Assembly (NCBI GenBank): GCA_030673825.1
Contig: JAUTCS010000095.1
Span: 1-32,241 of the forward strand
Direction of reading: 5' to 3'
DNA from: Verrucomicrobiota bacterium JB024
GTDB taxonomy: Bacteria > Verrucomicrobiota > Verrucomicrobiia > Opitutales > Cerasicoccaceae
DNA length: 32,241 nucleotides
This document shows, in pieces, positions 13,686-32,241 of this stretch. The notes beneath the pieces are model-generated. The model was not told where the DNA came from. It worked only from the letters and a program-made list of their open reading frames with translations, and ran no database searches. Within the stretch, counting starts at the first letter, position 1; each line of letters starts with the position of its first letter. Made by a program: the position numbers and the translations under genes.

Positions 13686-14264
13686 TTCTGACTGACTTTT
13701 GGGGAGTAACTGACGGAGCCGGTTGCCGTCATCATAGCATTGACCGGGTATTGCGTGTACCATTTTTGTGAGACGCGTTCGCGTGAGCACGTTCGTTCTT
13801 CATGGGAGAGGATTCGATGTCGATAGCCCGGGTAACAGAATCAGGGCAATTGAACTGACGCATTGATCGGAGATCCTGTTGGCAGCACAGCAGGTTGGTT
13901 TTTACGGAAAAATTTCCGCGAAAGGTCATGCCGCCTTGACAGATTTTTCGCGTTGGGCGGCGCGTTCCTCGTGCGATTTTCTAGAAAAAATGGCGAAGTT
14001 TACTGCCGTTGCCCAACTGGAAACGGGAATGTTTTTCCGGGCCGCGTGCGCCGGGGCCAGCGTGGATGCGGCCTGCGCGAGGGGCCGGCCCGGCGTGCCA
14101 ACGGCTGCGTTGAATTAGGGAAATCCTCACTTCGCAAGTTTCCCTATTTGGGCGAGCGCTTCTGCGATATGATGTCCTTACACGTAAGGGGTAAAGCGTC
14201 CCGCTCAAAAAAACGCCAATGCGTTTCAAAAACTAAAAAAATCGCGCCAAGTCGCGCCTGTATC
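13686..14264. other. Non-coding region ahead of the relaxase; candidate oriT
   Basis: These 579 bases carry no gene I trust, although the relaxase frame happens to stay open back to 13863. Three inverted repeats stand out: CGGAAA-AA-TTTCCG at 13905-13918, TAGGGAAA-N15-TTTCCCTA at 14116-14146 with a small inner stem, and CCTTAC-AC-GTAAGG at 14176-14189. Inverted repeats directly upstream of a MobF relaxase gene are the usual setting of an origin of transfer. The base composition switches from A+T-rich to G+C-rich within this stretch. Confidence 0.45.
14116..14189. other. Candidate oriT core with two inverted repeats
   Basis: The first stem is 8 bp (14116-14123 with 14139-14146) and its 15-nt loop contains a small CTT-CGC-AAG hairpin. 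The second is a perfect 6-bp palindrome with a 2-nt loop (14176-14181 with 14184-14189). They lie 76-149 bp before the relaxase ATG. MobF relaxases recognise a hairpin and nick a few bases from it. No nick consensus could be identified by eye. Confidence 0.35.
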
Positions 14265-16997
14265 ATGCTCACGCCTAAGGCACAGTTCAACCTCAAGAAT
14301 GCGAAGCAATACTTTCGTGAACACTTGAAGGTGGGCGATTACTACGCCCATAATAATGCCATCCAAGGTGAGTGGTTCGGTCGAGGTGCCGAGCGCTTGG
14401 GGCTGCGCGGTGCAGTCGGGGAACGCGAGTTCATGGAGCTGTGCGAAGGCAATAATCCGAGGACTGGAATGCGCCTGACGCTGCGCAAAAATACCACCCG
14501 GCAAGTCGGGGATCGGGAGGTGGCCAACCGCCGAATCTTCTACGACTTCACGATCAGCCCTCCCAAAAGTGTCTCGCTGATGGCGCTGTTCGAGGACAAA
14601 CGGCTGATCGAAATCCACGACGAAGCCGTGAAAAAAGCGATGCGCGAACTGGAGACTTTCGCCATGACCCGCGTGCGTAAAAAAGGCCAGAGCAGTGACC
14701 GAGAAACCGGCAACGTGGTGGGTGCGGCCTTCCGTCACGAGACGAGTCGGGCGCTCGATCCGCACCTGCATACCCACTGCGTGATCATGAACGCGACCTT
14801 CGACCCGGTGGAGAAACGCTGGAAGGCGTTGCAGAATTACGAGATGCTGAAGGCCCAGAAGTTCGTGGAGCATTACTACTACCACGAACTGGCCAAGGGG
14901 CTGCATCGGTACGGGTATCCGATCAAAAATAATGCCCACGACTTCGAACTGGAGGGGGTCTCTCCTGAGTTGATCGAGCGCTTCTCCAAGCGTCATTTGG
15001 AGATCGACGAGGGGGTGCGGAAGCACCTTTCGAACGGCGGTCGCCCTCACAACATCAAAGAGCTTCGGGCGCAGATTGCGCATGAAAATCGCGCCCGGAA
15101 AATAGTGTTCGGTTCCCCGGAAATACTGCACGAGTTGTGGCGAGCCCAGATGTCCGACGAGGAGCGTGCCTCCATTGCCATCTGCAATATGTACCGCCAC
15201 GAACTCGACAACCACGTGCAAATACGTGAGCTGCTGGACTGGTCCGAAGCACATGTTTTTGAGCGCAAGTCGGTGGTCGAAGACTACCAACTCAAGGCCG
15301 CCGCGCTCGCCCGTGGCCGGGGAAAAAACTTTACGCTGTCCGAACTCAACCGGCGGATCGAGCGGCGTGACTACCTGACGGATGCGGATTATCCACACCG
15401 GATCACAACCCGCGAAGTGCGCGGTCACGAGAATTTTATCGTGACGGCGGCGCGGGACGGGCTGGGCCGTCACAACATGCTCAACTGGCAATACCGCCCC
15501 TCGAACCGGGTCTCCGACGAGCAGGCCGCCGCCATCATGCGCATCCTCAAAAGCACGGATTACGTGACGCTTTTCCGGGGCGGGGCCGGAACCGGCAAGA
15601 CCTTTACTCTGAAGGAAGTCGAGCAGGGATTGCGCCAGGGCGGCTTTACGCCGGTGGTGCTCGCGCCGCAACGCCAGCAGGTTTTCAGCCTGCAAGAGGA
15701 CGGCTTCGAGGCGCAGACCCTGGCGAAATTCCTGGCGGAAAAAACGTTGCCGGGCAATCCGGTCGTCATCCTTGACGAGGCCGGTCAGGTCGGGGGCAAA
15801 CAGATGCACGAGCTGTTCAAACTGGTGGGGCCAGACGGGCGGATCATCCTCTCGGGCGACTCTCGCCAGCATGGCGCGGTGGAAGCCTCGGACGCGCTCC
15901 GGGCGCTGGAGAAGCACGGCTTTGTCGAGCCCGTTGAGCTGAATACGATCCGCCGACAGGACCCCGAGCTTGGCCGCGACGAACTGGAACGCGCCTTCAT
16001 CGGGGAATACCGCGATGTCGTCAAAGCCGCCTCCGAAGGCAAGGCGCTTGAATCTTTCGAACGGCTGGACGCGATGGATTGCGTCGAGGAATTGGACGGC
16101 GACGAGCGCCGCGAAGCGCTGGCCTTCGATTATGTCGAGGCGCGGAAGGCCGGAGACAAAACGCTCGTTGTCTCGCAGACTTGGGATGAAATCCACGCCG
16201 TCAATGCGGCGGTCCGTCAGCGCCTTAAAGAAGAGGGGCTGCTCGGCAAAGATGTTCCCGTCACCCTCTATCAGGGCCGTGACCTGGATTCGGCCCAAAA
16301 ACAGGATGCGCGATACTACAGCCCCGGCGATCACGTTTATTTCATCCGTAAGTACGGACGCTTCCAGAAAGGGGAGCTAGTCTCGGTGGTGTCTGTTAAT
16401 GAGAAGTGGATATCACTTATGAGAGACGGGAAGGCATCTTCCGTCAGCCTGAAACAGTCCGAACATTTCGTGGTGGCCCGCCCGTATGCGGCGACACTGG
16501 CGGAAGGCGACCGTCTTCAGCTAAAGTTCAACGGGCGCTCGGTGGACGGCAAGCAGCTTCTCAACGGCGAACTCGTCACGGTCTCGAAGATTTTCAAAAA
16601 CGGGCATCTGTCCGTCGTCGATGACCGGGGCATCCGCAAGACCCTCGCCCCCAATCAGCGTCTAGCGAACTTGGGCTACGCTATTACCTCCTACGGCTCT
16701 CAGGGCAAAACCGTCGATACGGTCCTGTTCAGCGATTCTCAGAATCAGGCCGCGACTAACCGCAAGCAGTGGTACGTCACCATCTCGCGGGCGCGGCGTA
16801 AGATCAAGATTTACACCGCCGACAAGGAAGCCCTGCGCGACAACCTCCTGCGCTCCGGCGAGGAACCGCTCGCCCTCGACATGAAGGAGCGAGCCAAACA
16901 GGCCAAACAGGCCCAGCCATCCCCGCGCCAAAGCATCTCGGTCACTCACCATACGCCCAGTCGCCGTCAGGGCCAATCCCGAGGCATCAGAATGTGA
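14265..16997 (+). CDS. MobF-family conjugative relaxase with RecD-like helicase (TraI/TrwC-type)
   Basis: I start this at the ATG at 14265 because the family N-terminus begins there (MLTPKAQFNLKNAKQYF). The open frame extends upstream to 13863, but those 134 codons look non-coding. The 910-residue protein has an N-terminal relaxase domain: Tyr pair Y26-Y27 in GDYYAHN as catalytic candidates, and the metal-binding histidines H158, H169 and H171 in HETSRALDPHLHTH. A superfamily I helicase follows, with Walker A GGAGTGKT (about 439-446), Walker B DEAG (504-507), a late motif AITSYGSQGKTVDTVL and a C-terminal TISRARRKI motif. It would nick oriT, stay bound to the 5' end and unwind the strand for transfer. 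It is somewhat shorter than F TraI and close to TrwC in size. The basic C-terminal tail (RQGQSRGIRM) is typical of low-complexity relaxase ends. Confidence 0.93.
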   Translation: MLTPKAQFNLKNAKQYFREHLKVGDYYAHNNAIQGEWFGRGAERLGLRGAVGEREFMELCEGNNPRTGMRLTLRKNTTRQVGDREVANRRIFYDFTISPPKSVSLMALFEDKRLIEIHDEAVKKAMRELETFAMTRVRKKGQSSDRETGNVVGAAFRHETSRALDPHLHTHCVIMNATFDPVEKRWKALQNYEMLKAQKFVEHYYYHELAKGLHRYGYPIKNNAHDFELEGVSPELIERFSKRHLEIDEGVRKHLSNGGRPHNIKELRAQIAHENRARKIVFGSPEILHELWRAQMSDEERASIAICNMYRHELDNHVQIRELLDWSEAHVFERKSVVEDYQLKAAALARGRGKNFTLSELNRRIERRDYLTDADYPHRITTREVRGHENFIVTAARDGLGRHNMLNWQYRPSNRVSDEQAAAIMRILKSTDYVTLFRGGAGTGKTFTLKEVEQGLRQGGFTPVVLAPQRQQVFSLQEDGFEAQTLAKFLAEKTLPGNPVVILDEAGQVGGKQMHELFKLVGPDGRIILSGDSRQHGAVEASDALRALEKHGFVEPVELNTIRRQDPELGRDELERAFIGEYRDVVKAASEGKALESFERLDAMDCVEELDGDERREALAFDYVEARKAGDKTLVVSQTWDEIHAVNAAVRQRLKEEGLLGKDVPVTLYQGRDLDSAQKQDARYYSPGDHVYFIRKYGRFQKGELVSVVSVNEKWISLMRDGKASSVSLKQSEHFVVARPYAATLAEGDRLQLKFNGRSVDGKQLLNGELVTVSKIFKNGHLSVVDDRGIRKTLAPNQRLANLGYAITSYGSQGKTVDTVLFSDSQNQAATNRKQWYVTISRARRKIKIYTADKEALRDNLLRSGEEPLALDMKERAKQAKQAQPSPRQSISVTHHTPSRRQGQSRGIRM

Positions 16998-17044
16998 ACC
17001 CTTTCACCTTCATTCACAATACAACCATCAAATCCATAAAAATC

Positions 17045-17428
17045 ATGAGTTCATTAAAAGAAAGAGTCGAAGCCAAGCTGAGAGAGGCCCGTGCCGATCA
17101 ATCTGGTCCCGCCCATTGCGTATCTTCCCATCCGCACTCGCAGGCGGAAGACCTGCTATTGATTGATGAACATGGCGAATGCTGGCAAATGCCCTGGTCG
17201 TGCCTCAAATATAGTACGCTCAACAAACGCGGAGAGCACTTTCACCTCTCCTTTGAGACCCATGGAGTCTGGCTGTATGGCAAATACCTGGCGGAACTGT
17301 CCGAACCGCTGGCCAAGCGCCAAATCGCCTCCATCCGGGCTTGCGGCAGTGATCAGGTCCATCGCGCCTATTCAGATCAGCCCTTTGTCGAACGGATGAC
17401 CGTCTCCGAGAAAGGAAAGCTCGAATAG
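17045..17428 (+). CDS. Hypothetical protein downstream of the relaxase
   Basis: A 127-residue frame begins at the ATG at 17045 (MSSLKERVEAKLREAR). An ATG at 16994 overlaps the relaxase stop as ATGTGA and would add 17 residues rich in Ile/Thr that look non-coding, though such an overlap could couple translation. The start is helical and charged. The middle (DLLLIDEHGECWQMPWSCL, FHLSFETHGVWLYGKYL) looks like a small alpha/beta domain with several Trp and Cys. I do not recognise a family. Its position immediately after the relaxase suggests an element-encoded accessory or regulatory protein; this is inference. Confidence 0.65.
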   Translation: MSSLKERVEAKLREARADQSGPAHCVSSHPHSQAEDLLLIDEHGECWQMPWSCLKYSTLNKRGEHFHLSFETHGVWLYGKYLAELSEPLAKRQIASIRACGSDQVHRAYSDQPFVERMTVSEKGKLE

Positions 17429-17486
17429 TGATGGGGTATTGCTTTGGGGACGGATCAATCTTGATTCCCATTGACCCTGTGCCAGA

Positions 17487-17957
17487 TTGAAAGGAAAATT
17501 TAGTGCATACCTGTTACGCAAGGCCAACAATCTGGTACAGGTAATCCGAACAACAGACGTATATCCCATGGATCAGGCAAAGGAGTACCTTGTCACTTGG
17601 TGTTTCTCCGTTAATGGGGAGGAGTTCAACGTTGATTTCTTCAACGATGATACATGCGAATTCTACTCATGGCGGGATCGAAATAAGCAAACAGAGGGGG
17701 ACCCGATTATCTTCATTAAGGCGATTGCGGGTGATCGAGCTTCAAAAAATAAGATCACTAACCATCAACGGGAATTCTCGATCACAGTAACAAACGTCGA
17801 TCCTGATTTGATCTGCGAGATTATTGACCTTGACGATAAGATCGAAAGGGAGGGCGACATCACTGAACAAGAAGTCGAGGACATTGACTTACGATTAGCT
17901 CCCTACTTCTGGGATCAGGTGAACGACTTCCTGCCAACCCCACATCCAAAGCCATAA
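17487..17957 (+). CDS. Hypothetical acidic protein, possible partner of the next gene
   Basis: The frame of up to 156 codons begins with TTG at 17487; an ATG at 17568 (MDQAKEYLVTW) is an alternative start. The C-terminal half is strongly acidic (DLDDKIEREGDITEQEVEDID), with a beta-rich N-terminal half (YLVTWCFSVNGEEFNVDF). No family is recognised. It is A+T-richer than the relaxase and integrase on either side, like the next gene, and precedes that gene by 66 bp on the same strand. Small acidic proteins beside an enzyme-like gene on mobile elements are often immunity or antidote proteins, but nothing in the sequence proves this. Confidence 0.6.
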   Translation: MKGKFSAYLLRKANNLVQVIRTTDVYPMDQAKEYLVTWCFSVNGEEFNVDFFNDDTCEFYSWRDRNKQTEGDPIIFIKAIAGDRASKNKITNHQREFSITVTNVDPDLICEIIDLDDKIEREGDITEQEVEDIDLRLAPYFWDQVNDFLPTPHPKP

Positions 17958-18023
17958 TCGGGGGACAACCTGCTGGGGCATTATCTGACAAGTTTCAACC
18001 ATCCAACCAACGATACATACGGC

Positions 18024-18611
18024 ATGCGTGAGATTTCGCCAGCAATTGGGATGAGTGCTGATGACTTTTTGGCAACTCGTCCATGCAAGGTGCAAATATT
18101 AGTTAAGGGTATTCGGGAAGAAAAGCTGTCTGGCTCACGCCCGAAGCCTTCAGCAACGCTCATTGATAAATCTGAGATTCTGACACCGGAAATCCGTCGG
18201 TCTCTTTTGGATGCAATAGCGGAGCTCGTCGACGAGAACTTATGCGGACGTTCGGAGATGTGCCTTCAGTTTTCCACACTGCTTCATCGAGCCTTAACTG
18301 AATTCGGTGTCCCTTCTCGCATTGCGCTAGGCACTGCAATGTATTTTGATCGCGGTAAAGAAATATATCGCTGGGAGCACGCCTGGGTGAGGATTCAATC
18401 TGAGGTTGTTGATGGAAATACCGATATGCTCTACGAGAATTTACAGGCTCCAGATTCCATTCAAGCTCGCCCATTTTGGGGAGAGATAAAGCATATCCCT
18501 GTCGGGCGGCGATTACGTGAAGCCAACGGGGTCTCGCCCAGATACGATAGTGACGTAGACAAAGTTTGGTGGCCAGAGCTTAGGCAAACCATACAGCGCT
18601 TTAGACGTTAA
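18024..18611 (+). CDS. Transglutaminase-like (papain-fold) domain protein of unknown role
   Basis: The 195-residue protein carries the pattern of a transglutaminase-like cysteine peptidase core: C80 in GRSEMCLQFSTLLHRAL followed by GVPSRI, H119 in WEHAWVRI, and D130 or D134 in VVDGNTDML. The order Cys-His-Asp, the spacing of about 39 and 11 residues, and the 'HAW' motif all fit the family. There is no signal peptide or membrane segment, so it is probably cytoplasmic. It lies convergent with the integrase (29 bp between the ends), inside the putative mobile element and A+T-richer than the mobility genes. A protease, amide-hydrolase or effector role is possible. The function is unknown. Confidence 0.72.
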   Translation: MREISPAIGMSADDFLATRPCKVQILVKGIREEKLSGSRPKPSATLIDKSEILTPEIRRSLLDAIAELVDENLCGRSEMCLQFSTLLHRALTEFGVPSRIALGTAMYFDRGKEIYRWEHAWVRIQSEVVDGNTDMLYENLQAPDSIQARPFWGEIKHIPVGRRLREANGVSPRYDSDVDKVWWPELRQTIQRFRR

Positions 18612-18639
18612 AGCATATGGATACGACGGAGGAACAGGG

Positions 18640-20076
18640 CTAGGTCGGATTCTTCGCTGGGTAGAGTTCGAAATACGCCTCGGCGTCTTTGGGGCTGTTG
18701 AGCAGGCCGCGATAGTGTTCGACGAAGACTTCGGAGCTGTGGCCCATCTGTTCGATGGTCTTGTGCTTGTCGAAGCCGCAGGCGTAGTAGTAGTGGGTAC
18801 CGTAGGTGTGGCGGAGCACGTCCTGAAAGGTTTGCAGGGTCTTGCGGCAGCGGCTGGCGAAACGGTTTTCGTCTTCAGTGGGCTTGTGCCCGCCCTTGAC
18901 GGCCCGACGCAGCTTGATCAGGCGTTCGCCGTCGCCCTCGGGCAGGAAGGCCAGTGCCCGGAAATTCGCGTAGCGCACGTTGTTGCTGTTCGGGTTGTAG
19001 TGGAAACACAGCGGGAGTTTTTCCGCTTTGATGAACTTGAGCCAGACCAGGGCGCATTCGCTCAAAACGATGGTGCGCTGGTCGCGCTTTTTGCCGAAGC
19101 CGTCGATGCGGATGATACCCTCTTCCAACTTGATAAAGCGTTCCCAATAGTTGGACTGCGCAACCAAGTCGAAAACCTCGCTGGGGCGCATTCCGGCGAA
19201 CAGGCCGCAGACGGCGAAGCCCAGCATCCCGTGCTTGCGTTGCTCTTGGGCCACGTGCAGGACCCGCTTGACGGCTTCCAGCGACAGGATGACGGGGGCG
19301 CTGCGCTGCAATGGGGCGGACTTGACCGCGCTGGCCCCGTTGAACTTGCGGTAGTGCACCTGCACGCCGTCCATCGGATTCTTGTTGATGAAACGGTGCT
19401 CGTCCTTGGGGTTGGAGGCGTCGTTGAAAAAGTTGCCGATGTCGGCCAAGTAGTTTTCCAGCGTGCGTTCGGCCACGTCGAGCCCTTCGAAGAATTCGAT
19501 CAGTTGCCGCGCCGTGACGGCTCCGATGGTGATGCCGGGGTGCTTGGCCGCGAAGGTCTTGCGCAGGTTGTTTAGGCGCTGCTTGAGTGTCTTGTAGGTT
19601 TCCTCGCTGAGCTTGCCTTTCTCGGCAGCCTGCTGCTTGCGGCTGAGGAAGATGCGGATGCACTCATCCAGCGGCGGGCTGTCCACCGCCAGCCGGAGAT
19701 GATCGCGGTAAATCATGACCGCATCGACAAGACTTTTGCTGCGGTCGGGGATTTGCTCGAAGATCGCGAAAGCGGCCTTGGCCTCCCGTAGTTGCTTGGG
19801 CGTGAGGTGGACCTGTTCGCGCTCGCGTCGTTCCAATCGTTCGTGCTCCTCGCGGTCCTTGAGTATCGATGCCTGAAAGGAGAGGGCGGCGGTGCGTTGC
19901 TCGGTCAAGGTGGCGGATTTGCATTCTCGTTTCAGGTCCCGGACAAAGGACTTGCGCCGCGCCTTGGGGCGTCCCTTCTCGTCGAACTCAAAATACTCGC
20001 ACACCCACTGGTTGGTGGAGGCGTTCTTGAAAACGGAGGGCTTGGGCAGACTCCGGGGTCTGGCATTTGTGGGCAT
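18640..20076 (-). CDS. Tyrosine site-specific recombinase (integrase)
   Basis: The 478-residue protein has a basic N-terminal arm, a SAM-like core-binding domain at about residues 135-245 (LDECIRIFLSRKQ, RTLENYLADIGNFF) and a catalytic domain from about 265. Catalytic positions: R297 in FAGMRPSEVF, a probable Lys in DGFGKKRDQ, R422 in DVLRHTYGTH, H445 in QMGHSS and the nucleophile Y455 in EHYRGLL. In the usual HxLR box the first His is replaced by Asp (D419). The start codon is 58 bp from the 3' end of tRNA-Ser, so the enzyme probably integrates and excises the element at that gene. G+C-rich codon use resembles the relaxase and differs from the cargo genes between them. Confidence 0.92.
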   Translation of the reverse strand: MPTNARPRSLPKPSVFKNASTNQWVCEYFEFDEKGRPKARRKSFVRDLKRECKSATLTEQRTAALSFQASILKDREEHERLERREREQVHLTPKQLREAKAAFAIFEQIPDRSKSLVDAVMIYRDHLRLAVDSPPLDECIRIFLSRKQQAAEKGKLSEETYKTLKQRLNNLRKTFAAKHPGITIGAVTARQLIEFFEGLDVAERTLENYLADIGNFFNDASNPKDEHRFINKNPMDGVQVHYRKFNGASAVKSAPLQRSAPVILSLEAVKRVLHVAQEQRKHGMLGFAVCGLFAGMRPSEVFDLVAQSNYWERFIKLEEGIIRIDGFGKKRDQRTIVLSECALVWLKFIKAEKLPLCFHYNPNSNNVRYANFRALAFLPEGDGERLIKLRRAVKGGHKPTEDENRFASRCRKTLQTFQDVLRHTYGTHYYYACGFDKHKTIEQMGHSSEVFVEHYRGLLNSPKDAEAYFELYPAKNPT

Positions 20077-20133
20077 TTTTCAGAAAAATTACACTGAATT
20101 CCTCTGACTGTCAACGCTAGGGCCCACTAGTAA

Positions 20134-20144
20134 TGGCGGAGAGG
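20134..20144 (-). other. Probable attachment-site half at the tRNA-Ser 3' end
   Basis: This is the 3' acceptor strand plus the encoded CCA of the tRNA-Ser gene, the side facing the integrase. tRNA 3' ends are the commonest integration targets of such recombinases. The extent of the core is unknown because no second copy was found in the window. The best partial match is the 8-bp TGGCGGAG at 3702-3709. Confidence 0.35.
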
Positions 20145-20221
20145 GAGGGATTCGAACCCCCGGTACCTTGCGGTACACCTGATTTCGAGTCAGGCACAAT
20201 CGGCCACTCTGCCACCTCTCC
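20134..20221 (-). tRNA. tRNA-Ser (anticodon CGA)
   Basis: The minus strand reads GGAGAGG (20221-20215) to CCTCTCC (20144-20138), a perfect 7-bp acceptor stem, with discriminator G and an encoded CCA (20136-20134). The anticodon stem-loop CCTGA-CTCGAAA-TCAGG gives anticodon CGA, reading UCG serine codons. A long variable arm (GTACC-GCAA-GGTAC) marks a class II tRNA, and the T arm carries GGTTCGAATCC. The length of 88 nt fits tRNA-Ser. It appears intact, so integration next to it did not destroy the gene. Confidence 0.97.
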
Positions 20222-26180: not shown

Positions 26181-26550
26181 AATGCGGGGCTCCGCGCCCC
26201 GCACCCGCCGCTGGGCCTGCGCGGCCCAGACCCGCGGCAGGCACAGCCTGCACTTTCGATGCTGCGCATCGCATCAGCGTTTATTGAAAACAGCTTCGCT
26301 CTTTTCAATAAACGCTGAGAGAGCATCAAAACTGGGTCGCCACCATTGGGAGCACGGCTGTGGCTCACACCCATTTCTGATGGCGATCCTGTGTCAGCGA
26401 AGGCTTCCAAGTCGGTCCAACGTTTGGGCGCAGCCCGGACGTTGGACCGGGGGTGCAGCCCTCGGCTGCCGCGGGGTGTGGGGGCGCGGAGCCCCCGCAT
26501 CTTCCCCTCTCCCCGAAATCTCTTTGCAAAGGCGTTGCCTTTCGGGGCAG
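26181..26550. repeat. Dispersed structured repeat, copy A (train of hairpins inside the thi cluster)
   Basis: The segment consists of consecutive hairpins: GCGGGGC/GCCCCGC (26184-26202), CTGGGCC/GGCCCAG, GCAGGC/GCCTGC, a perfect 16-bp stem at 26275-26290 with 26302-26317, GGTCCAACGT/ACGTTGGACC (26414-26448) with an inner GGGC/GCCC, GGGGGC/GCCCCC (26480-26496) and CCCCGAAA/TTTCGGGG (26511-26547) enclosing AAAGGC/GCCTTT. The first 185 bp recur at 32085-32241. Open frames through it have no protein-like features and are not genes. It ends 21 bp before thiH. Confidence 0.85.
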
Positions 26551-26571
26551 CGCGAGTATGATTAACCGATC

Positions 26572-27780
26572 ATGGCCAGACCTGCCAAGTACCACACCCC
26601 GGCGCAAGCGCCGGTGGGAACATTTTCTGAAAGCCTGCAACGGCTGCCCATCAGCGAGCTCGCCTACCGTTCGCGCCACGGCGACCGCGAGAAGATCGCC
26701 CGCATCATCCGCAAGGGCCGCGCCGAGACGCTGGAGGAGTTCGCCCTGCTGACCTCGCCCGAGGCCGGGGAATGGCTGGAGGCGATGGCAGCGATTTCGC
26801 AGCGGCTGACGCAGCGGTTTTACGGCAAGGCTATCCGGCTGTTCGCGCCGCTTTACCTGTCCAACGAGTGCGTCAACGTCTGCACGTACTGCGGCTTCTC
26901 GCGACACAACGACATCCCACGCCTGACTATCCCGGTCGAGGTGGCCGAGGAACAGATCGCCAAGATCGCCCGGCAGGGTTTCCGCTCGCTGCTACTGGTG
27001 GCCGGGGAGCACCCCAAGTACGTCTCCAACGGCTACGTGGCCGAGTGCATCAAGGCCGGATTGCGACATATGCCCTCCGTCGCGCTGGAACTGGGGCCGA
27101 TGGACGCCGCCGACTACGCCCCGCTCGTCCAGACCGGGGCCGAGGGCCTGATTGTTTACCAGGAGAGCTATCACCAGGCGACCTACGAAACCATGCACAA
27201 GGCTGGGCCGAAAAAGTACTACGCCTGGCGCATCGACACCGCCGAGCGCGGCTACGAGGCCGGATTCCGCCGCCTCGGGATCGGCGCGCTCTACGGGCTC
27301 TACGACTGGCGGCACGAGACCATGGCCGTGGCCGCGCACGCCCGGCACCTGCTCAAGAATTGCTGGAAGGCGCAGGTCTCGGTCAGCTTCCCGCGCATGC
27401 GGCCCGCCGCTGGCGGTTACCAGCCGGACCCGTCCTTTATCATGAGCGACCGCGAGATGGTGCAGGTCATCTGCGCGTTGCGGATGTTCCTGCCGCAGGT
27501 GGGCATCACCCTGTCCACCCGCGAGTCCCCGAAGCTGCGCGACGGCCTCGTCAAGGTCGGCGTCACCCTGATGAGCGCGGGCTCCAGCACCGAGCCCGGC
27601 GGCTACGCCAACTTCAGCGAAGAGAGCTGGACCCCGACCGAAGACCAGCCCGGCGAGCAGTTTCATATTGCCGATGAGCGCCCGCCGGTCGAGATTGCGG
27701 CCATGATCCGCCGCCAGGGTTACGAAGCGGTCTGGAAAGACTTCGACCGCGCCCTCGTCACCACCGACACCTCCAGCTGA
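26572..27780 (+). CDS. thiH: 2-iminoacetate synthase (tyrosine lyase)
   Basis: The 402-residue radical SAM enzyme cleaves tyrosine to dehydroglycine and p-cresol, feeding thiazole synthase. The cluster-binding motif C100-V-N-V-C104-T-Y-C107 sits in APLYLSNECVNVCTYCGFS, characteristic of ThiH. LLLVAGEHPKYV, GLIVYQESYH, YAWRIDTAERGYEAGFRRLGIGALYGL and LSTRES are further family segments. Because aerobes mostly use glycine oxidase (ThiO) instead, ThiH suggests an anaerobic or facultative lifestyle. It is separated from thiG by the repeat and followed by thiS after 23 bp. Confidence 0.95.
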   Translation: MARPAKYHTPAQAPVGTFSESLQRLPISELAYRSRHGDREKIARIIRKGRAETLEEFALLTSPEAGEWLEAMAAISQRLTQRFYGKAIRLFAPLYLSNECVNVCTYCGFSRHNDIPRLTIPVEVAEEQIAKIARQGFRSLLLVAGEHPKYVSNGYVAECIKAGLRHMPSVALELGPMDAADYAPLVQTGAEGLIVYQESYHQATYETMHKAGPKKYYAWRIDTAERGYEAGFRRLGIGALYGLYDWRHETMAVAAHARHLLKNCWKAQVSVSFPRMRPAAGGYQPDPSFIMSDREMVQVICALRMFLPQVGITLSTRESPKLRDGLVKVGVTLMSAGSSTEPGGYANFSEESWTPTEDQPGEQFHIADERPPVEIAAMIRRQGYEAVWKDFDRALVTTDTSS

Positions 27781-27803
27781 ACCGATCAACCCTTTCCCCT
27801 GAC

Positions 27804-28016
27804 ATGAGCGACAAAATCCACATTACCGCCAACGGAAAACCCTACGTGCTGGAAACGGCGACCACCCTACCGGACTTTCTCGGCACGCTGGGGCTGGCCC
27901 CGGAGCGCGTCGTGGTCGAGCGCAACCGCGAGGCCCTCACCCCCGCCGACACCCTCAAAACTTCCCTCGCCGACGGCGACAACCTGGAAATCGTCCGCAT
28001 CGTCGCGGGGGGGTAA
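27804..28016 (+). CDS. thiS: Sulfur carrier protein ThiS
   Basis: The 70-residue beta-grasp protein ends in the obligatory Gly-Gly (IVRIVAGG), which is adenylated and converted to a thiocarboxylate as sulfur donor for thiazole synthase. VVVERNREALTP and the LADGDNLEIVRIVAGG end are typical of the family. It follows thiH by 23 bp and is clearly co-transcribed with it. No ThiF adenylyltransferase is present in the window, so that step must be encoded elsewhere. Confidence 0.95.
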   Translation: MSDKIHITANGKPYVLETATTLPDFLGTLGLAPERVVVERNREALTPADTLKTSLADGDNLEIVRIVAGG

Positions 28017-28174
28017 GCAAACGCCCCGGAGCGGTGACACCTTCACCCAAAAAAAGCGGACAGGATAAAGGACGGGCAGGCATCACTTGTCCTAATCCGT
28101 ATGGGCACACAGCCTTATCTATACCGTGATTGAGATAATTTAACTTTGTTGGGGACTCGCATTCCATTAGAAAA

Positions 28175-28867
28175 ATGGGCATGAAAGCTGTCCTCTCTGC
28201 CTTATTGCTTATCTTCCTTTCGACCAGCCTCTACGGCTCCATCACGCTTTATTTTGGCTACACTGCTCAAAATAGTTATCCTTCGGGACAGAATGACCCG
28301 CTAGGTTTTGCTGGTGCCCATTTCGACTACACTTTTGTCATCGACCAGCCAAGCTACAATATTAATGGCTGGAACGAAACTACCGCCACTCTATCACTGG
28401 CCGAAGTAACAATCACAGGCTCAAGAGAAGGAGGCATTGATGGCAATTATACGATCGTTGACAAGAGTGCAGAACCACTGACTCTATTTTACAATAATAC
28501 CTCTCACGATCCAATGTATGAAGTCATAAGCAGTGAAGCTATACTTCAAAATATAGACTCAAATCCTTTCGGCAGTGCAATTTGGCTTAACTTCTTTTGC
28601 ATGAAGCCCCAAGGGACCTCAGATCCCATTCCCGGCGATCGCATCAAGGTCGAAGATTTTGCAATCAATGACTTTGCCATTACCTTGGCTTACACCTTGG
28701 ATGGCCAGTGGTATGAACTGGACGTCATCGAAGGCACAAAAACCTTTTCCGCCGTCCCCGAAATAAGGCAGTGGGCCGTCTGGCTAGGCATGGGTATCCT
28801 GCCCGTTGTCATCTATACAGTCGAACGCCGGGAGAAAAAGAAGGCGACCGGTAAAAATGCCGCCTGA
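28175..28867 (+). CDS. Secreted PEP-CTERM-like protein of unknown function
   Basis: The 230-residue protein has an N-terminal signal peptide (MKAVLSALLLIFLSTSLYG), a beta-rich middle with Tyr/Asn/Thr-rich strands and a C-terminal tail of the PEP-CTERM type: VPEI, a hydrophobic stretch (WAVWLGMGILPVVIY), then basic residues (ERREKKK). The 'VPEIR' variant of the motif is known in Verrucomicrobia. It is clearly A+T-richer than thiS and the nuclease gene on either side, suggesting recent arrival or different selection. The enzymatic role, if any, is not visible. Confidence 0.78.
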   Translation: MGMKAVLSALLLIFLSTSLYGSITLYFGYTAQNSYPSGQNDPLGFAGAHFDYTFVIDQPSYNINGWNETTATLSLAEVTITGSREGGIDGNYTIVDKSAEPLTLFYNNTSHDPMYEVISSEAILQNIDSNPFGSAIWLNFFCMKPQGTSDPIPGDRIKVEDFAINDFAITLAYTLDGQWYELDVIEGTKTFSAVPEIRQWAVWLGMGILPVVIYTVERREKKKATGKNAA

Positions 28868-29020
28868 GCGTATCTCCCCCATCCCCCCCTGGACAGCAGC
28901 CACTATTTTCGGTTCGAAAATGGAATCGGAAATGTAGGTGGCCAGGGACGGACCACCGGTATTTTCCCGCACAGGGGGATTGCCTTACCGGGCTTTTCCT
29001 CGTTAGGCTGCCCGTTTTCC

Positions 29021-30379
29021 ATGAAGTTGACAGATCTGAACCCGCACGGAGGCATCGGGGCAAATTGCCTGCTGGTCGAACTCGGCCCCTTCCGGTTCCT
29101 CATCGACGCGGGTATCCACCCGAAAAAAGTCGGACGCGAGACGCTGCCGGATTTTGACAAGCTCGCCCCCAACAGCATCGACGCGCTCATCCTGACGCAC
29201 TGCCACCTCGACCACCTCGGGGCCGTGCCCGTGGCCCTGCGCCACCAGCCCGAGGCGATGATCATCCTCTCCCGTCCGACCCAGGAGCTGGCTATCCGCA
29301 TGCTGCGCAACTCCTGCAACGTCATGAAGCGCCAGCGCGACGAGCAGCGCATCCCCGAGTACCCGCTGTACTCCTTTTCCGAGCTGGACCGGCTGGAGCC
29401 GATCATGTTCGCCCTGCCCTACGGGCACACGCGCACCTTCGCCAAGGGCGGTGAGGAGGTGCAGGTCACGCTCTACGCCTCGGGCCACATCGTCGGTGCC
29501 GCCGCCGTCAAGCTCACCTATAAGCACCGCTCGATCTTCTTCACTGGCGACGTACTCTTCTCCGACCAGAAGACCCTCCCCGGCGCGGCCTTCCCGAACG
29601 AGACCTTTGACACGCTCGTGATGGAAACGACCCGCGGTCTGACCCGCCGTACCGGTGAGAACCGCCGCGAGGAGGAGGTCTCCCGCCTGCTCCAGACCGT
29701 CGCCCGCACCCTGGAAAAGGGTGGCTCCGTGCTCATCCCGGCCTTCGCGCTCGGACGCATGCAGGAGATCCTCGCCCTGCTCGACGAGGCGCTCGCCAAA
29801 GGCGTCATTCCCAAGGCCCCGGTCATCTGCTCCGGCCTCGGGCTGGATCTGGTCGATTACTTCGACGCCATCGCCCGCAAGCTCGGCGCGGTCAACTTCC
29901 GACGCACGGTCCTCAAACGCCTCGGCGTGCAAAGCCTCAAGCGCTTCCCCGATCCGGGTAAATCGCCCTCGAAGCCCACGATCTACGTGGTCAGCAGCGG
30001 CATGCTGGTGGAGAACACCCCCTCCTACGCCGTCGCCGCCTCCCTGTTGGGCAATCCGCACAACGCCTTGTGCTTCGTCGGCTACTGCGACCCGGACACC
30101 CCCGGCGGCAAGCTGCTCGAAACGACCCACGAAAGTTCCTTTGTCTTCGACGCGCTCGACTACGTCACCCCCGTGCGGGCCGCCATCGAGCGTTTCGACC
30201 TCAGCGGTCACGCCGACCGCGAGGAGTTGCTGGAGTTCGCCCACCGCTGCGAGCCCCGCGCCATTGTGCTCACCCACGGCGATCCCGACGCGCGCGCCTG
30301 GTTCCGGGAGCAGTTGGAAATGGACGAGAACGCCTATCAGGTCACCGACCCTGAGCCGGGGACCTGCTACACGGTCTGA
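29021..30379 (+). CDS. Beta-CASP metallo-beta-lactamase-fold RNA nuclease (CPSF/RNase J-like)
   Basis: The 452-residue protein has the metal motif H60-C-H62-L-D64-H65 in LTHCHLDHLGAVP, a second site in YASGHIVGAAAV with FFTGDVLFSD, and a beta-CASP insertion in the second half (GSVLIPAFALGRMQEILALLDEAL, VVSSGMLVENTPS, VGYCDPDTPGGKLLE). The late motif FDLSGHADREELLEF (His) and VLTHGDPDARAW complete the active site. Proteins of this type are RNA endo/exonucleases; some bacterial members process mRNA or rRNA. The C-terminal KH or RNase J helical domain is absent, placing it nearer CPSF73-like proteins. No signal peptide is present, so it acts in the cytoplasm. Confidence 0.92.
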   Translation: MKLTDLNPHGGIGANCLLVELGPFRFLIDAGIHPKKVGRETLPDFDKLAPNSIDALILTHCHLDHLGAVPVALRHQPEAMIILSRPTQELAIRMLRNSCNVMKRQRDEQRIPEYPLYSFSELDRLEPIMFALPYGHTRTFAKGGEEVQVTLYASGHIVGAAAVKLTYKHRSIFFTGDVLFSDQKTLPGAAFPNETFDTLVMETTRGLTRRTGENRREEEVSRLLQTVARTLEKGGSVLIPAFALGRMQEILALLDEALAKGVIPKAPVICSGLGLDLVDYFDAIARKLGAVNFRRTVLKRLGVQSLKRFPDPGKSPSKPTIYVVSSGMLVENTPSYAVAASLLGNPHNALCFVGYCDPDTPGGKLLETTHESSFVFDALDYVTPVRAAIERFDLSGHADREELLEFAHRCEPRAIVLTHGDPDARAWFREQLEMDENAYQVTDPEPGTCYTV

Positions 30380-30426
30380 GCTAGGCCATTCACCCCCGCG
30401 ACTCACCAGAAGTTTCCTTAATCGCG

Positions 30427-30455
30427 TTGACAACCCAATCTACTTAGGGTAACTC
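30427..30455 (+). promoter_or_regulatory. Possible promoter of the 30537 gene
   Basis: TTGACA at 30427-30432 matches the -35 consensus, with a weak TAACTC 17 bp later. An imperfect inverted repeat (CTTAGGG...CCCTTAAG) overlaps it, which could be an operator or the end of the preceding transcript. Confidence 0.25.
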
Positions 30456-30536
30456 CCTTAAGCAGTTGGGTACGGAATTTGCACGATCACAGTTGCCTAA
30501 CGCTCTAAATTAGGTTAATTCAATTTATATCAGCTC

Positions 30537-31121
30537 ATGATCAGAAAAACGACAGCACTTCTGGGCTTTATCGCCTCTATCAGCGCGGCCAGTGCCGCCC
30601 CCGCCGGACTTCTGTCCGTCGAGTCCGCCAGCCAACTTGCCCTGAGCGTGCTCAAAGAAGACTGGGCTCCGAATGAGGTCGTCGTGCTCGACCGCCCGGC
30701 CTTCTCCCTCCAGTACCCCGCAGGCTGGAAAGTCGCCACCCACCAGCAGGACTACAATGCCGACCGCCTTTTCACCATCGAGGTGGCCAATGGTGACTCC
30801 TACATCACGATCAAGGTTTTCGTTCCCGACCCTAATGCCGATGCCGACGACCTCATGTTCAGCATCCAGACCACGCTGGACGGTCCGATGATCGACACCT
30901 ACTCGCGTGAGCATTTCGAGAACTGGGGCTCCTTCCAGGGCAAGGGTCTTCACCTCAAGGGCAAGATTGCCGGTTTCCTACCCGGTGGCGCCCGCATCTT
31001 TGTCACCACCACGGACGGCAAACAGGGCCTCCTTGTCACCGAGCTGTACTACTCCGACGACCTCGAAGAGGCGATGCCGGGCTTCGACCTCGTGCGCAAC
31101 AGCTTCAAGTTCAAGCAATAA
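30537..31121 (+). CDS. Secreted PsbP/DUF1795-like protein of unknown function
   Basis: The 194-residue protein has a signal peptide (MIRKTTALLGFIASISAASA, cleavage near residue 20). The mature part contains FSLQYPAGWKVATH and ITIKVFVPDPNADADDLMF, then GKGLHLKGKIAGFLPGGARIF and a closing GFDLVRNSFKFK. That order resembles PsbP/DcrB-type domains, which commonly read 'YP.GW.v ... F....l'. It is presumably periplasmic. It is monocistronic, between a possible promoter at 30427 and a bidirectional terminator at 31151. The function in this organism is unknown; the family call is moderate. Confidence 0.7.
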   Translation: MIRKTTALLGFIASISAASAAPAGLLSVESASQLALSVLKEDWAPNEVVVLDRPAFSLQYPAGWKVATHQQDYNADRLFTIEVANGDSYITIKVFVPDPNADADDLMFSIQTTLDGPMIDTYSREHFENWGSFQGKGLHLKGKIAGFLPGGARIFVTTTDGKQGLLVTELYYSDDLEEAMPGFDLVRNSFKFKQ

Positions 31122-31150
31122 GAACGCTCGAACGAAATACTCTTTTCTTC

Positions 31151-31182
31151 AAAAAGCCGCGTTTTGATACGTGGCTTTTTTT
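31151..31182. terminator. Bidirectional Rho-independent terminator
   Basis: A stem of 11 bp (AAAAAGCCGCG with CGTGGCTTTTT, one G-T wobble) and an 8-nt loop is flanked by A and T tracts. It lies between convergent genes and ends at the stop codon of the minus-strand phosphatase gene, so it can stop transcription from both sides. Confidence 0.85.
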
Positions 31183-32026
31183 ATGCCTGGGTTTCGCCCC
31201 GGTACACTTCCAGCACACGGCGGCAGAACGCCGGGTTACCCGCCACGTAGCGCACGGGCGGCATGTGCACATGAAAGGCGCTGAGCGGAAACATCGGCTC
31301 TCCGTCGAGGTAGGCGATCTCGCCACCCCCGGCCTTGATCAGAGCGAAACCGGCGGCCACGTCCCACAGCTTGACCCGGAAGTCCACGCAGGCTTCGAGC
31401 TTGCCAACGGCGGTATAGGCGAGGTTCATTGCCGCGCTGCCGAAGGAACGCACCCGGAAGTGCTCCAGCAACGGACGTACCCGCGTGAGGTCCTCTGGCG
31501 CGAAGGGGAAATTTGTCGCGAAGTGGCTCTGCGCCGTCGGCTCGGTGGTAATCACACGGGCCTTGCGCGTACCGTCGAGCACCCCCTCACCCTCTCCACC
31601 TTCGATCAGCGTGTGCCGGGCGTAGTCGTAGATATAGCCGTAAACGGGCTCGCCGTTGCGAAGCAGGGCCAGCGAGATCGAACACATCGGGATGCCCAGC
31701 GCGTAGTTGTTCGTCCCGTCGATCGGGTCGATGATCCAGGCGTACTCGGCCTCCAGTTGCACAACCTCGTCCTCGGGGTTGGACTCCTCGCTGCAATAGT
31801 CGTCATGCGGAAACGAGCGCCGCAGCTCCGTAAACACCTTCTCGGAAATGGCGAAGTCCACGAAGGTCACGCGGGTCTCGTCTTCCTTCCACTGGCTCTC
31901 AACCTGCCCGAACTGGCTCTCGAAAAAAGCAATCTGGTTCTTCACCGCGACCCGCCCGGCGTTGATCCGGTGGCGCAGCTCGCTGGCGACCGGTTTGCGA
32001 CCCGGCTTTCTCTTCTGCGGCTTCAT
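31181..32026 (-). CDS. Inositol-monophosphatase-family phosphatase
   Basis: I choose the ATG at 32026 (MKPQKRKPGRKPVASEL). The frame continues upstream to 32206, but those codons lie in the dispersed repeat and look non-coding. The 281-residue enzyme carries the metal-binding motifs of the family: E80-E81 in YCSEESN, D100-P-I-D-G-T in AWIIDPIDGTNNYALG, and the later LWDVAAG. These residues bind three Mg2+ in inositol monophosphatase, histidinol phosphatase (HisN) and 3'-nucleotidase (CysQ) members. Substrate choice cannot be read from the motifs. The basic N-terminal tail (KRKPGRKP) is unusual. The gene ends at the shared bidirectional terminator. Confidence 0.93.
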   Translation of the reverse strand: MKPQKRKPGRKPVASELRHRINAGRVAVKNQIAFFESQFGQVESQWKEDETRVTFVDFAISEKVFTELRRSFPHDDYCSEESNPEDEVVQLEAEYAWIIDPIDGTNNYALGIPMCSISLALLRNGEPVYGYIYDYARHTLIEGGEGEGVLDGTRKARVITTEPTAQSHFATNFPFAPEDLTRVRPLLEHFRVRSFGSAAMNLAYTAVGKLEACVDFRVKLWDVAAGFALIKAGGGEIAYLDGEPMFPLSAFHVHMPPVRYVAGNPAFCRRVLEVYRGETQA

Positions 32027-32084
32027 AAAGCCGGCCACCCTGACACCTCCCCCGCCCCTTGGCAACGCCAGAGGCGGGGCTTTT

Positions 32085-32241
32085 AATGCGGGGCTCCGCG
32101 CCCCGCACCCGCGGCAGGCAGAGCCTGCACTTTCGATGCTGCGCATCGCGTCAGCGTTTGTTGTAAAGAGCTTGGCTCTTTTCAACAAACGCCGAGGGGG
32201 CATCAAAACTGGGTCGCCACCATTTGGGGTACGGTTGTGTC
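32085..32241. repeat. Dispersed structured repeat, copy B (cut by window edge)
   Basis: This matches copy A (26181-26365) along its whole visible length except for a 27-bp module absent here (26209-26235 in copy A). The hairpins GCGGGGC/GCCCCGC, GCAGGC/GCCTGC and the long stem (32152-32194) are all conserved. It begins 59 bp upstream of the phosphatase ATG, and a G+C-rich hairpin (CCCCGCC/GGCGGGG) lies just left of it. The window ends within the repeat. Confidence 0.85.

What the first reader, a model, noticed from the sequence alone, without database searches (positions are those of the whole stretch)
26181..32241. Dispersed structured repeat with a compensatory base-pair change
Copies at 26181-26365 and 32085-32241 share about 155 aligned bases built from successive hairpins. 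In the longest stem, A26283-T26309 in copy A is G32160-C32186 in copy B: both partners changed and pairing is kept. Elsewhere the copies differ by single mismatches at different positions of the stem. A paired change is what selection for structure, rather than for protein, predicts; it could reflect an RNA element or a palindrome needed for copying.
Basis: seen in the sequence. Interest (0 to 1): 0.75.

Follow-up and report, generated by a model that had tools for sequence, protein, structure and literature searches.

The report
Ever-changing perfect palindromes between genes
Dozens of copies of a hairpin-rich DNA element lie just behind genes in one bacterial genus, and their longest hairpin keeps changing its letters while its two halves stay exact mirror partners, which looks more like one half being copied onto the other than like an RNA held in shape by selection.

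Summary
Copy A is about 325 bp (26181-26505), one of dozens of copies per genome in one Verrucomicrobiia genus. In 120 complete copies from four species, 85 have perfectly complementary 20-bp arms in the long stem (H5), in 65 different sequences; a sequence-only alignment has 542 of 2,516 cells changed on both sides. Three facts speak against ordinary RNA selection. G.T pairs are almost absent (6, against 15 A.C and 2,580 Watson-Crick). Mirrored one-pair changes have the transition share of single mutations (11 of 28; 48% in flanks), not of wobble-mediated or double-hit change. In codirectional spacers the element is sense 20 times and antisense 20 times. In like-armed copies loops are inverted more often than shuffles give (11 against 4.7), a modest signal. 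At shared sites related species carry different palindromes. Best reading: a REP/REPIN-like extragenic element whose arms are kept identical at the DNA level by arm-to-arm copying (template switching or hairpin-primed synthesis), possibly with exchange between copies. The copying is inferred, not seen. No Y1 (RAYT-type) transposase was found in three of the four species; what spreads it is unknown. New variant of a known kind.

The parts
26181..26505 (+). copy A, full element, between thiG (stop 26168) and thiH (start 26572)
   Evidence: gene names by Pfam
26183..26203 (+). H1, 5' terminal GC-rich hairpin (TGCGGGGC...GCCCCGCA)
   Evidence: read; its core GGGGCTNCGCGCCCC occurs 35 times in G000, 37 in G001, control 0
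26211..26229 (+). H2 hairpin
   Evidence: covaries, G.T 9, A.C 17 in 106 copies, automatic placement
26237..26251 (+). H3 hairpin
26257..26271 (+). H4 hairpin, the most conserved (4 of 6 pairs never vary in 44 distinct copies)
26274..26318 (+). H5, long hypervariable palindrome
26323..26344 (+). conserved 3' frame GCATCAAAACTGGGTCGCCACC
26413..26449 (+). H6, second long hairpin; in some copies replaced by other hairpins
26480..26499 (-). 3' terminal hairpin, inverted relative of H1
   Evidence: 26481-26495, minus strand
32085..32241 (+). copy B, cut by the contig end; core match 32115-32221

Best explanation
A dispersed, extragenic, multi-hairpin DNA element with inverted ends, its full form found in one genus only and placed at the 3' ends of genes; it works like a REP/REPIN-type miniature element. 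Shown: the long palindrome H5 changes fast, its arms mostly stay perfectly Watson-Crick complementary, and the changes look like single mutations present in both arms. Inferred: a mutation in one arm is copied into the other when replication (or the element's own propagation) passes through the folded hairpin, by polymerase template switching between arms or by hairpin-primed resynthesis. That keeps the palindrome perfect without selection on each base pair, and at times flips the loop. Exchange between copies probably also moves H5 variants. The mobilising enzyme is unknown.
For: 85 of 120 copies have exactly complementary 20-bp arms, in 65 sequences. 2,580 Watson-Crick, 6 G.T, 15 A.C. One-pair mirrored neighbours: 11 transitions of 28; flanks 1,314 of 2,744, frame 22 of 44; single-hit fits (P 0.24), two-hit less so (P 0.0097; 0.016 on the forest; 0.037 on 14 disjoint pairs). 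Loops inverted in 11 of 78 like-armed pairs, 4.7 by shuffling, reached in 15 of 10,000. Related elements with matching frames differ in H5 at mirrored pairs. Orientation 20:20 in codirectional spacers. Sites occupied in one species and empty in another.
Against: Copying was not observed. H6 keeps two T.G pairs, and H3 has G.T as often as A.C (17, 16). The coarser loop test is significant pooled (24 of 5,000) but, by genome, only in G003. Several G003 stems are imperfect. 28 partly dependent pairs is a small sample. A 15:6 split of A.C to G.T (P 0.08) would be a slight wobble excess if the other strand were the RNA.
Confidence: 0.6

Rival explanations
1. DNA-level selection: a structure-specific protein (unknown transposase, recombinase or nucleoid protein) needs a perfect DNA hairpin, so mismatched copies are lost and compensated ones survive, without arm-copying.
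For: Watson-Crick only; several hairpins of the element covary; position at gene ends.
Against: Two independent hits predict 63% transitions; 11 of 28 seen, P 0.0097. Loop inversion is not predicted. Arms vary more than the frame.
Confidence: 0.2
2. RNA-level selection: H5 and neighbours are a structured RNA (3' UTR element or small RNA) kept by compensatory mutation.
For: Massive covariation, strong fold, copies close behind stop codons (median 45 nt to H3 in 92 copies with a same-strand upstream gene), T.G pairs kept in H6.
Against: G.T 0.2% of paired cells in H5; no transition excess; 20 sense and 20 antisense in codirectional spacers; nothing in Rfam but weak microRNA matches below cut-off.
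Confidence: 0.1
3. Cassette exchange: recombination between copies swaps whole H5 units within conserved frames, so pairing is kept because the palindrome moves as one piece.
For: H5 differs in blocks between related elements; arms at G000/G001 orthologous sites are nearly as different as random pairs (mean 0.30 over 12 pairs against 0.33); some stems look chimeric, e.g. L171 and L024.
Against: It does not explain the origin of 65 distinct perfect arms, 28 pairs of which are one mirrored pair apart.
Confidence: 0.08

Closest known systems
REPINs, paired REP sequences with RAYT transposases (PMC3116915, passages seen)
   Same: Extragenic, many copies, inverted terminal palindromes around a middle whose capacity to form a hairpin is kept; [quoted passage not shown]
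   Different: Longer, with several hairpins; no GTAG excess; no Y1 transposase found in G001-G003; near-absence of wobble pairs and a single-mutation spectrum, which the passages I saw do not report for REPINs.
GTAG and CGTC REP families (PMC3733652, passages seen)
   Same: Mostly between convergent or unidirectional genes; that paper says the verrucomicrobium O. [quoted passage not shown]
   Different: A chain of hairpins of about 325 bp rather than a 20-40 bp palindrome.
Perfect palindromes in Nematomorpha mitochondrial genes (PMC6649704, passages seen)
   Same: Arms evolve in concert and stay perfect; active conversion or template switching was proposed.
   Different: Mitochondrial, inside genes, not a dispersed family with a conserved frame.
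Template-switch mutation in hairpins (PMC8794818, abstract and start of text; PMC8604942, start of abstract)
   Same: One event restores or changes pairing in both arms; inverted-repeat arms homogenise and spacers invert.
   Different: Described there for RNA genes and yeast coding sequence, not as the signature of a bacterial repeat family.
Repetitive hairpin elements of sponge mitochondria (PMC2800124, passages seen)
   Same: Dispersed hairpins in intergenic regions.
   Different: There stems are conserved and loops vary; here stems vary too, in mirror.

Membership tests
REPIN / REP with RAYT | Terminal palindromes in inverted orientation around a hairpin-forming middle | tested here: met
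REPIN / REP with RAYT | GTAG tag beside the palindrome | tested here: not met
   GTAG or CTAC in the 53 nt before H3 in 30 of 120 copies, against 27 of 117 in a stretch further upstream; the 3' side was not tested
REPIN / REP with RAYT | A RAYT (Y1_Tnp) gene in the genome | tested here: not met
   0 matches at E 0.001 in G001, G002, G003; 4 in G000, 3 over the cut-off; no element sequence beyond 13-base matches in the 20 fetched Y1 loci
REPIN / REP with RAYT | Extragenic, between convergent or codirectional genes | tested here: met
   65 convergent, 40 codirectional, 2 divergent of 107
CGTC-tagged REP | CGTC at one end of the palindrome | tested here: inconclusive
   CGTC at the foot of H5 in 39 of 120, TGTC in 55; its last two bases are within the stem
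Structured RNA family | Covariation above shuffled controls | tested here: met
Structured RNA family | G.U tolerated as an intermediate, transitions favoured | tested here: not met
   for H5; H6 keeps two T.G pairs
Structured RNA family | Fixed orientation to transcription | tested here: not met
   20 sense, 20 antisense in codirectional spacers
Structured RNA family | A transcript is made | not testable with these tools
   no expression data
MITE | Terminal inverted repeats | tested here: met
MITE | Target-site duplication | not tested
   none noticed by eye in the empty-site alignments, no systematic test
MITE | Related autonomous transposon | tested here: inconclusive
   only Y1 and RT families were sought
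Palindrome kept by template switching | Mirrored changes with a single-mutation spectrum | tested here: met
Palindrome kept by template switching | Spacer (loop) inversion | tested here: met
   11 of 78 against 4.7 by shuffling; by-genome column shuffles significant only in G003
Palindrome kept by template switching | Mismatch correction seen to happen | not testable with these tools
   needs an experiment

The most novel reading that the evidence does not exclude
A genus-specific mobile element that propagates as folded single-stranded DNA, one arm of its hairpin being resynthesised from the other at each round by an unknown, non-RAYT enzyme. Every mutation is then mirrored by the way it is copied, the palindrome is a self-correcting product of copying rather than a selected structure, and covariation here is no evidence of RNA function.
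Probability: 0.2. Interest if true: 0.85.

Novelty: new variant of a known kind. Interest (0 to 1): 0.62.

Why it matters
Covariation is widely taken as the strongest sequence evidence for RNA structure. This family shows overwhelming covariation that carries marks of DNA arm-copying: hardly any wobble, a single-mutation spectrum, some inverted loops, indifference to orientation. It suggests simple tests to separate the two causes, and offers over 100 comparable palindromes in four related genomes on which to measure how palindromes repair themselves. It also asks what spreads REP-like elements where no RAYT is found.

Tried and rejected
RNA family: nothing in Rfam at gathering scores in the window but a tRNA; at E up to 1 around copy A only two microRNA models far below their cut-offs.

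RAYT or reverse transcriptase as partner: no Y1_Tnp match in G001-G003, no RVT_1 match in G001 but some in G002, G003, G005 and a weak one in G000. BLAST of copy A against the 20 of 25 Y1 matches and the 6 RT matches that were fetched gave only 13-base matches.

Carriage by phage or plasmid: no match to copy A in either collection. The one viral-contig hit and two of 17 genome-contig hits to a short pattern lack the rest of the element and are taken as chance.

Guide hypothesis (variable arm or linker matches the insertion site): own flanks match no better than shuffled pairings; H5 188 and linker 47 of 200 shuffles at least as good, 71 copies. A first run on 82 copies had suggested a linker signal; it went when copies whose downstream gene lay within 90 nt were left out.

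Loop inversion by column shuffling: pooled 24 of 5,000, duplicates collapsed 65 of 5,000, by genome only G003 (34), not G000 (4,415), G001 (1,401), G002 (3,267). The test on like-armed copies was positive.

Rows dropped: of 158 regex hits, 38 were left out of the stem counts (listed). My reading of that list: 10 real copies with perfect palindromes but a diverged 3' frame, H4 or short H5; 6 with H5 lost or cut; 2 from G005; 8 opposite-strand reads of counted copies; 1 inverted H4 beside another hairpin; 11 spurious. R1 matches were not all fetched. The 67 'other' cells lie largely at the outer edge, where the automatic fold runs past the stem.
Full report
WHAT IS THERE. The window is a whole contig (C95) of a 4.6-Mb draft genome, G000. 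Copy A fills most of the 403-nt spacer between thiG and thiH (Pfam; the thiH name is from its radical-SAM and BATS domains and place). Copy B lies at the contig end beside an inositol-monophosphatase-like gene.

HOW MANY AND WHERE. BLAST gave 51 matches in the own genome (40 of 90 candidates scored, some being opposite-strand reads of palindromes). Of 28 genomes searched, 5 had matches: G000, three more of its genus, and G005 of a sister genus, in part; 23 had none. A covariance model of 45 copies hit the same five of 177 genomes of the order, with strict filters. An exact 20-base-plus-gap pattern in one genome per species gave 17 stretches: 13 in Verrucomicrobiia MAG 5_bin.45, 2 in Verrucomicrobiia MAG Co_bin.226, 2 elsewhere without the rest of the element. 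So the full element was found in one genus only; the sister genus has the terminal hairpin (22 exact copies; none in G004 or G007) in a related modular family. No plasmid or phage record matched copy A.

THE PALINDROME. I collected 120 complete copies (48 G000, 44 G001, 17 G002, 11 G003). Folding each H5 on its own gave 2,580 Watson-Crick pairs, 6 G.T, 15 A.C, 67 other, 40 bulged bases, 101 distinct arms as folded and 45 different loops. In 85 of 120 the 20-bp arms are exactly complementary, in 65 sequences; 18 have one mismatch, 17 more. In an alignment from sequence alone, 2,400 of 2,516 cells are Watson-Crick, 542 changed on both sides, 25 G.T, 40 A.C, 51 other; 12 of the G.T and 13 of the A.C fall on two neighbouring positions by the loop, where a one-base length difference probably misaligns. 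At one position A-T, T-A, C-G and G-C occur 36, 34, 26 and 18 times. Mean pairwise identity within a genome is 0.91-0.95 in H4, 0.79-0.89 in the 3' frame, 0.75-0.97 in H3, but 0.63-0.77 in the arms and 0.35-0.42 in the loop. Ten of 38 copies set aside before counting carry further perfect palindromes.

WHY NOT SIMPLY RNA SELECTION. Selection on an RNA helix tolerates G.U and moves mostly by transitions through it (recalled; PMC8794818 states the G-U intermediate as the common belief). In H5 G.T is 0.2% of paired cells and not commoner than A.C (6 against 15, two-sided P 0.08). Among perfect arms, 28 pairs differ by exactly one mirrored base pair: 11 transitions, 17 transversions; the 52 pairs two apart give 50 and 54. 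Ordinary changes in these genomes are 48% transitions (1,314 of 2,744 in flanks of eight orthologous locus pairs; 22 of 44 in the 3' frame). One hit copied to the other arm predicts 48% and fits (P 0.24). Two independent hits predict 63% and fit poorly (P 0.0097 on 28 pairs; 0.016 on the 27-edge forest; 0.037 on 14 disjoint pairs). The pairs are few and partly dependent, so this is evidence, not proof.

LOOPS. If arms exchange strands, loops should invert. Among 78 same-genome pairs of distinct copies with like inner arms, 11 have loops that are exact reverse complements, 1 reversed, 2 complemented; shuffling loops within genomes gives 4.7 on average and reaches 11 in 15 of 10,000. Column shuffling is weaker: 24 of 5,000 pooled, 65 with duplicates collapsed, and by genome only G003 (34) stands out, not G000, G001 or G002.

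TURNOVER IN PLACE. L003 and L009 are related elements of one genome whose frames around H5 agree while H5 differs at four mirrored pairs and in the loop. Nine sites with both flanks shared between species hold an element in both; orientation agrees at five and is opposite at four (L029/L117, L030/L111, L121/L164, L137/L172). In one search the copies of these four pairs lie between convergent genes, L164 not being classified. Over 17 putative orthologous pairs, some matched on one flank only, arms differ at 33% of positions and the 5' frame at 14%; the 12 G000/G001 pairs among them average 30%, against 33% for all G000/G001 pairs (the 30% by hand from its rows). So arms at the same site are nearly as different as random ones between species whose flanks there are 85% identical.

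CONTEXT. Of 107 copies with both neighbours called, 65 lie between convergent genes, 40 between codirectional genes (20 sense, 20 antisense), 2 between divergent genes; 1 of 120 overlaps an ORF call (gene calls by my own codon script, which misses some genes). The upstream stop is a median 45 nt before H3 in the 92 copies with a same-strand upstream gene. Bases just before the first hairpin are T-rich (67% and 47% T at -2 and -1 in the 92 copies where a script placed it). The thiG-thiH spacer is 20 nt without element in G003, about 105 nt without it in G004 of another genus, and holds a different ORF in G001 (spacers read by eye); in G002 the element follows thiG but thiH is elsewhere. Of eight G001 sites probed, three gave one match spanning both flanks, hence no full element, in another species (L120 and L125 in G000, L122 in G002); the alignment shows it for L120 and L122, with short hairpins left in G002. 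The other five were rearranged, partly matched or probably occupied. Presence thus differs between species.

MECHANISM. Shown: an extragenic palindromic element with fast-changing, mostly perfect arms, a single-mutation spectrum of mirrored changes, some loop inversion, indifference to the direction of transcription, presence and absence at orthologous sites. Inferred: arms are equalised by DNA copying through the folded hairpin, with exchange between copies adding to the mix. Unknown: what moves it. No Y1 match in G001-G003, no reverse transcriptase match in G001, and no element sequence in the fetched Y1 and RT loci.

AGAINST THIS READING. H6 keeps two T.G pairs (read; 24 of 120 copies hit by the H6 pattern, some only in part). 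H3 shows G.T as often as A.C (17 and 16), H2 9 and 17 (automatic placement). Several G003 stems are imperfect. Some H5 have been lost. The copying has not been observed, and a protein that demands perfect hairpins remains possible.

RELATION TO KNOWN KINDS. It works like a REPIN: inverted terminal palindromes, extragenic, hairpin middle with compensatory changes (PMC3116915, passages), and sits where REPs sit (PMC3733652, passages). Two defining tests, the GTAG tag and a resident RAYT, are not met, so I do not file it as a REPIN. The behaviour of the arms is closest to the perfect palindromes of Nematomorpha mtDNA, for which active conversion was proposed (PMC6649704, passages), and to template-switch maintenance of hairpins (PMC8794818, abstract and start of text; PMC8604942, start of abstract). 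Word searches for such elements in this group and for concerted perfect repeats or arm homogenisation listed no description of this family; only an open-access library was searched.

Noticed in passing
13863-20221: A TrwC-type relaxase/helicase (PF08751) and a tyrosine-recombinase-like ORF (18640-20076, no Pfam hit at 1e-3; name is my reading) beside tRNA-Ser(CGA): perhaps an integrated mobilisable element. No tRNA stretch of 12 bases or more recurs in the window.
   Followed up: partly
26535-26562: A promoter-like TTGCCT/TATGAT pair before thiH, with a counterpart in G001 (TTGCCT/TACAAT), lies downstream of the element: thiH may have its own promoter where something separates it from thiG.
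   Followed up: no
L054, L042, L050, L207 (G005): The sister genus has a related modular family: the H1-type hairpin, a module TGCGTGACCGCACAGGACA that returns inverted at the other end, and a different long hairpin TTTTGCCGCAAAGG. In G005 an H1-type hairpin also follows thiG.
   Followed up: partly
L018, L019, L027 and others, 3' part: Many copies end in other short hairpins (GGGGTAGCCGCC...GGCGGCGTAGGGGC and the like) that may be a second repeat family.
   Followed up: no
linker after 26344: The stretch of about 55 nt after the 3' frame is also highly variable between otherwise similar copies such as L001 and L002; it does not match insertion sites.
   Followed up: partly
contig ends of G000 (C1, C11, C45, C94, C95, C135, C145): Copies often sit at contig ends, probably because the repeat breaks the assembly.
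   Followed up: no
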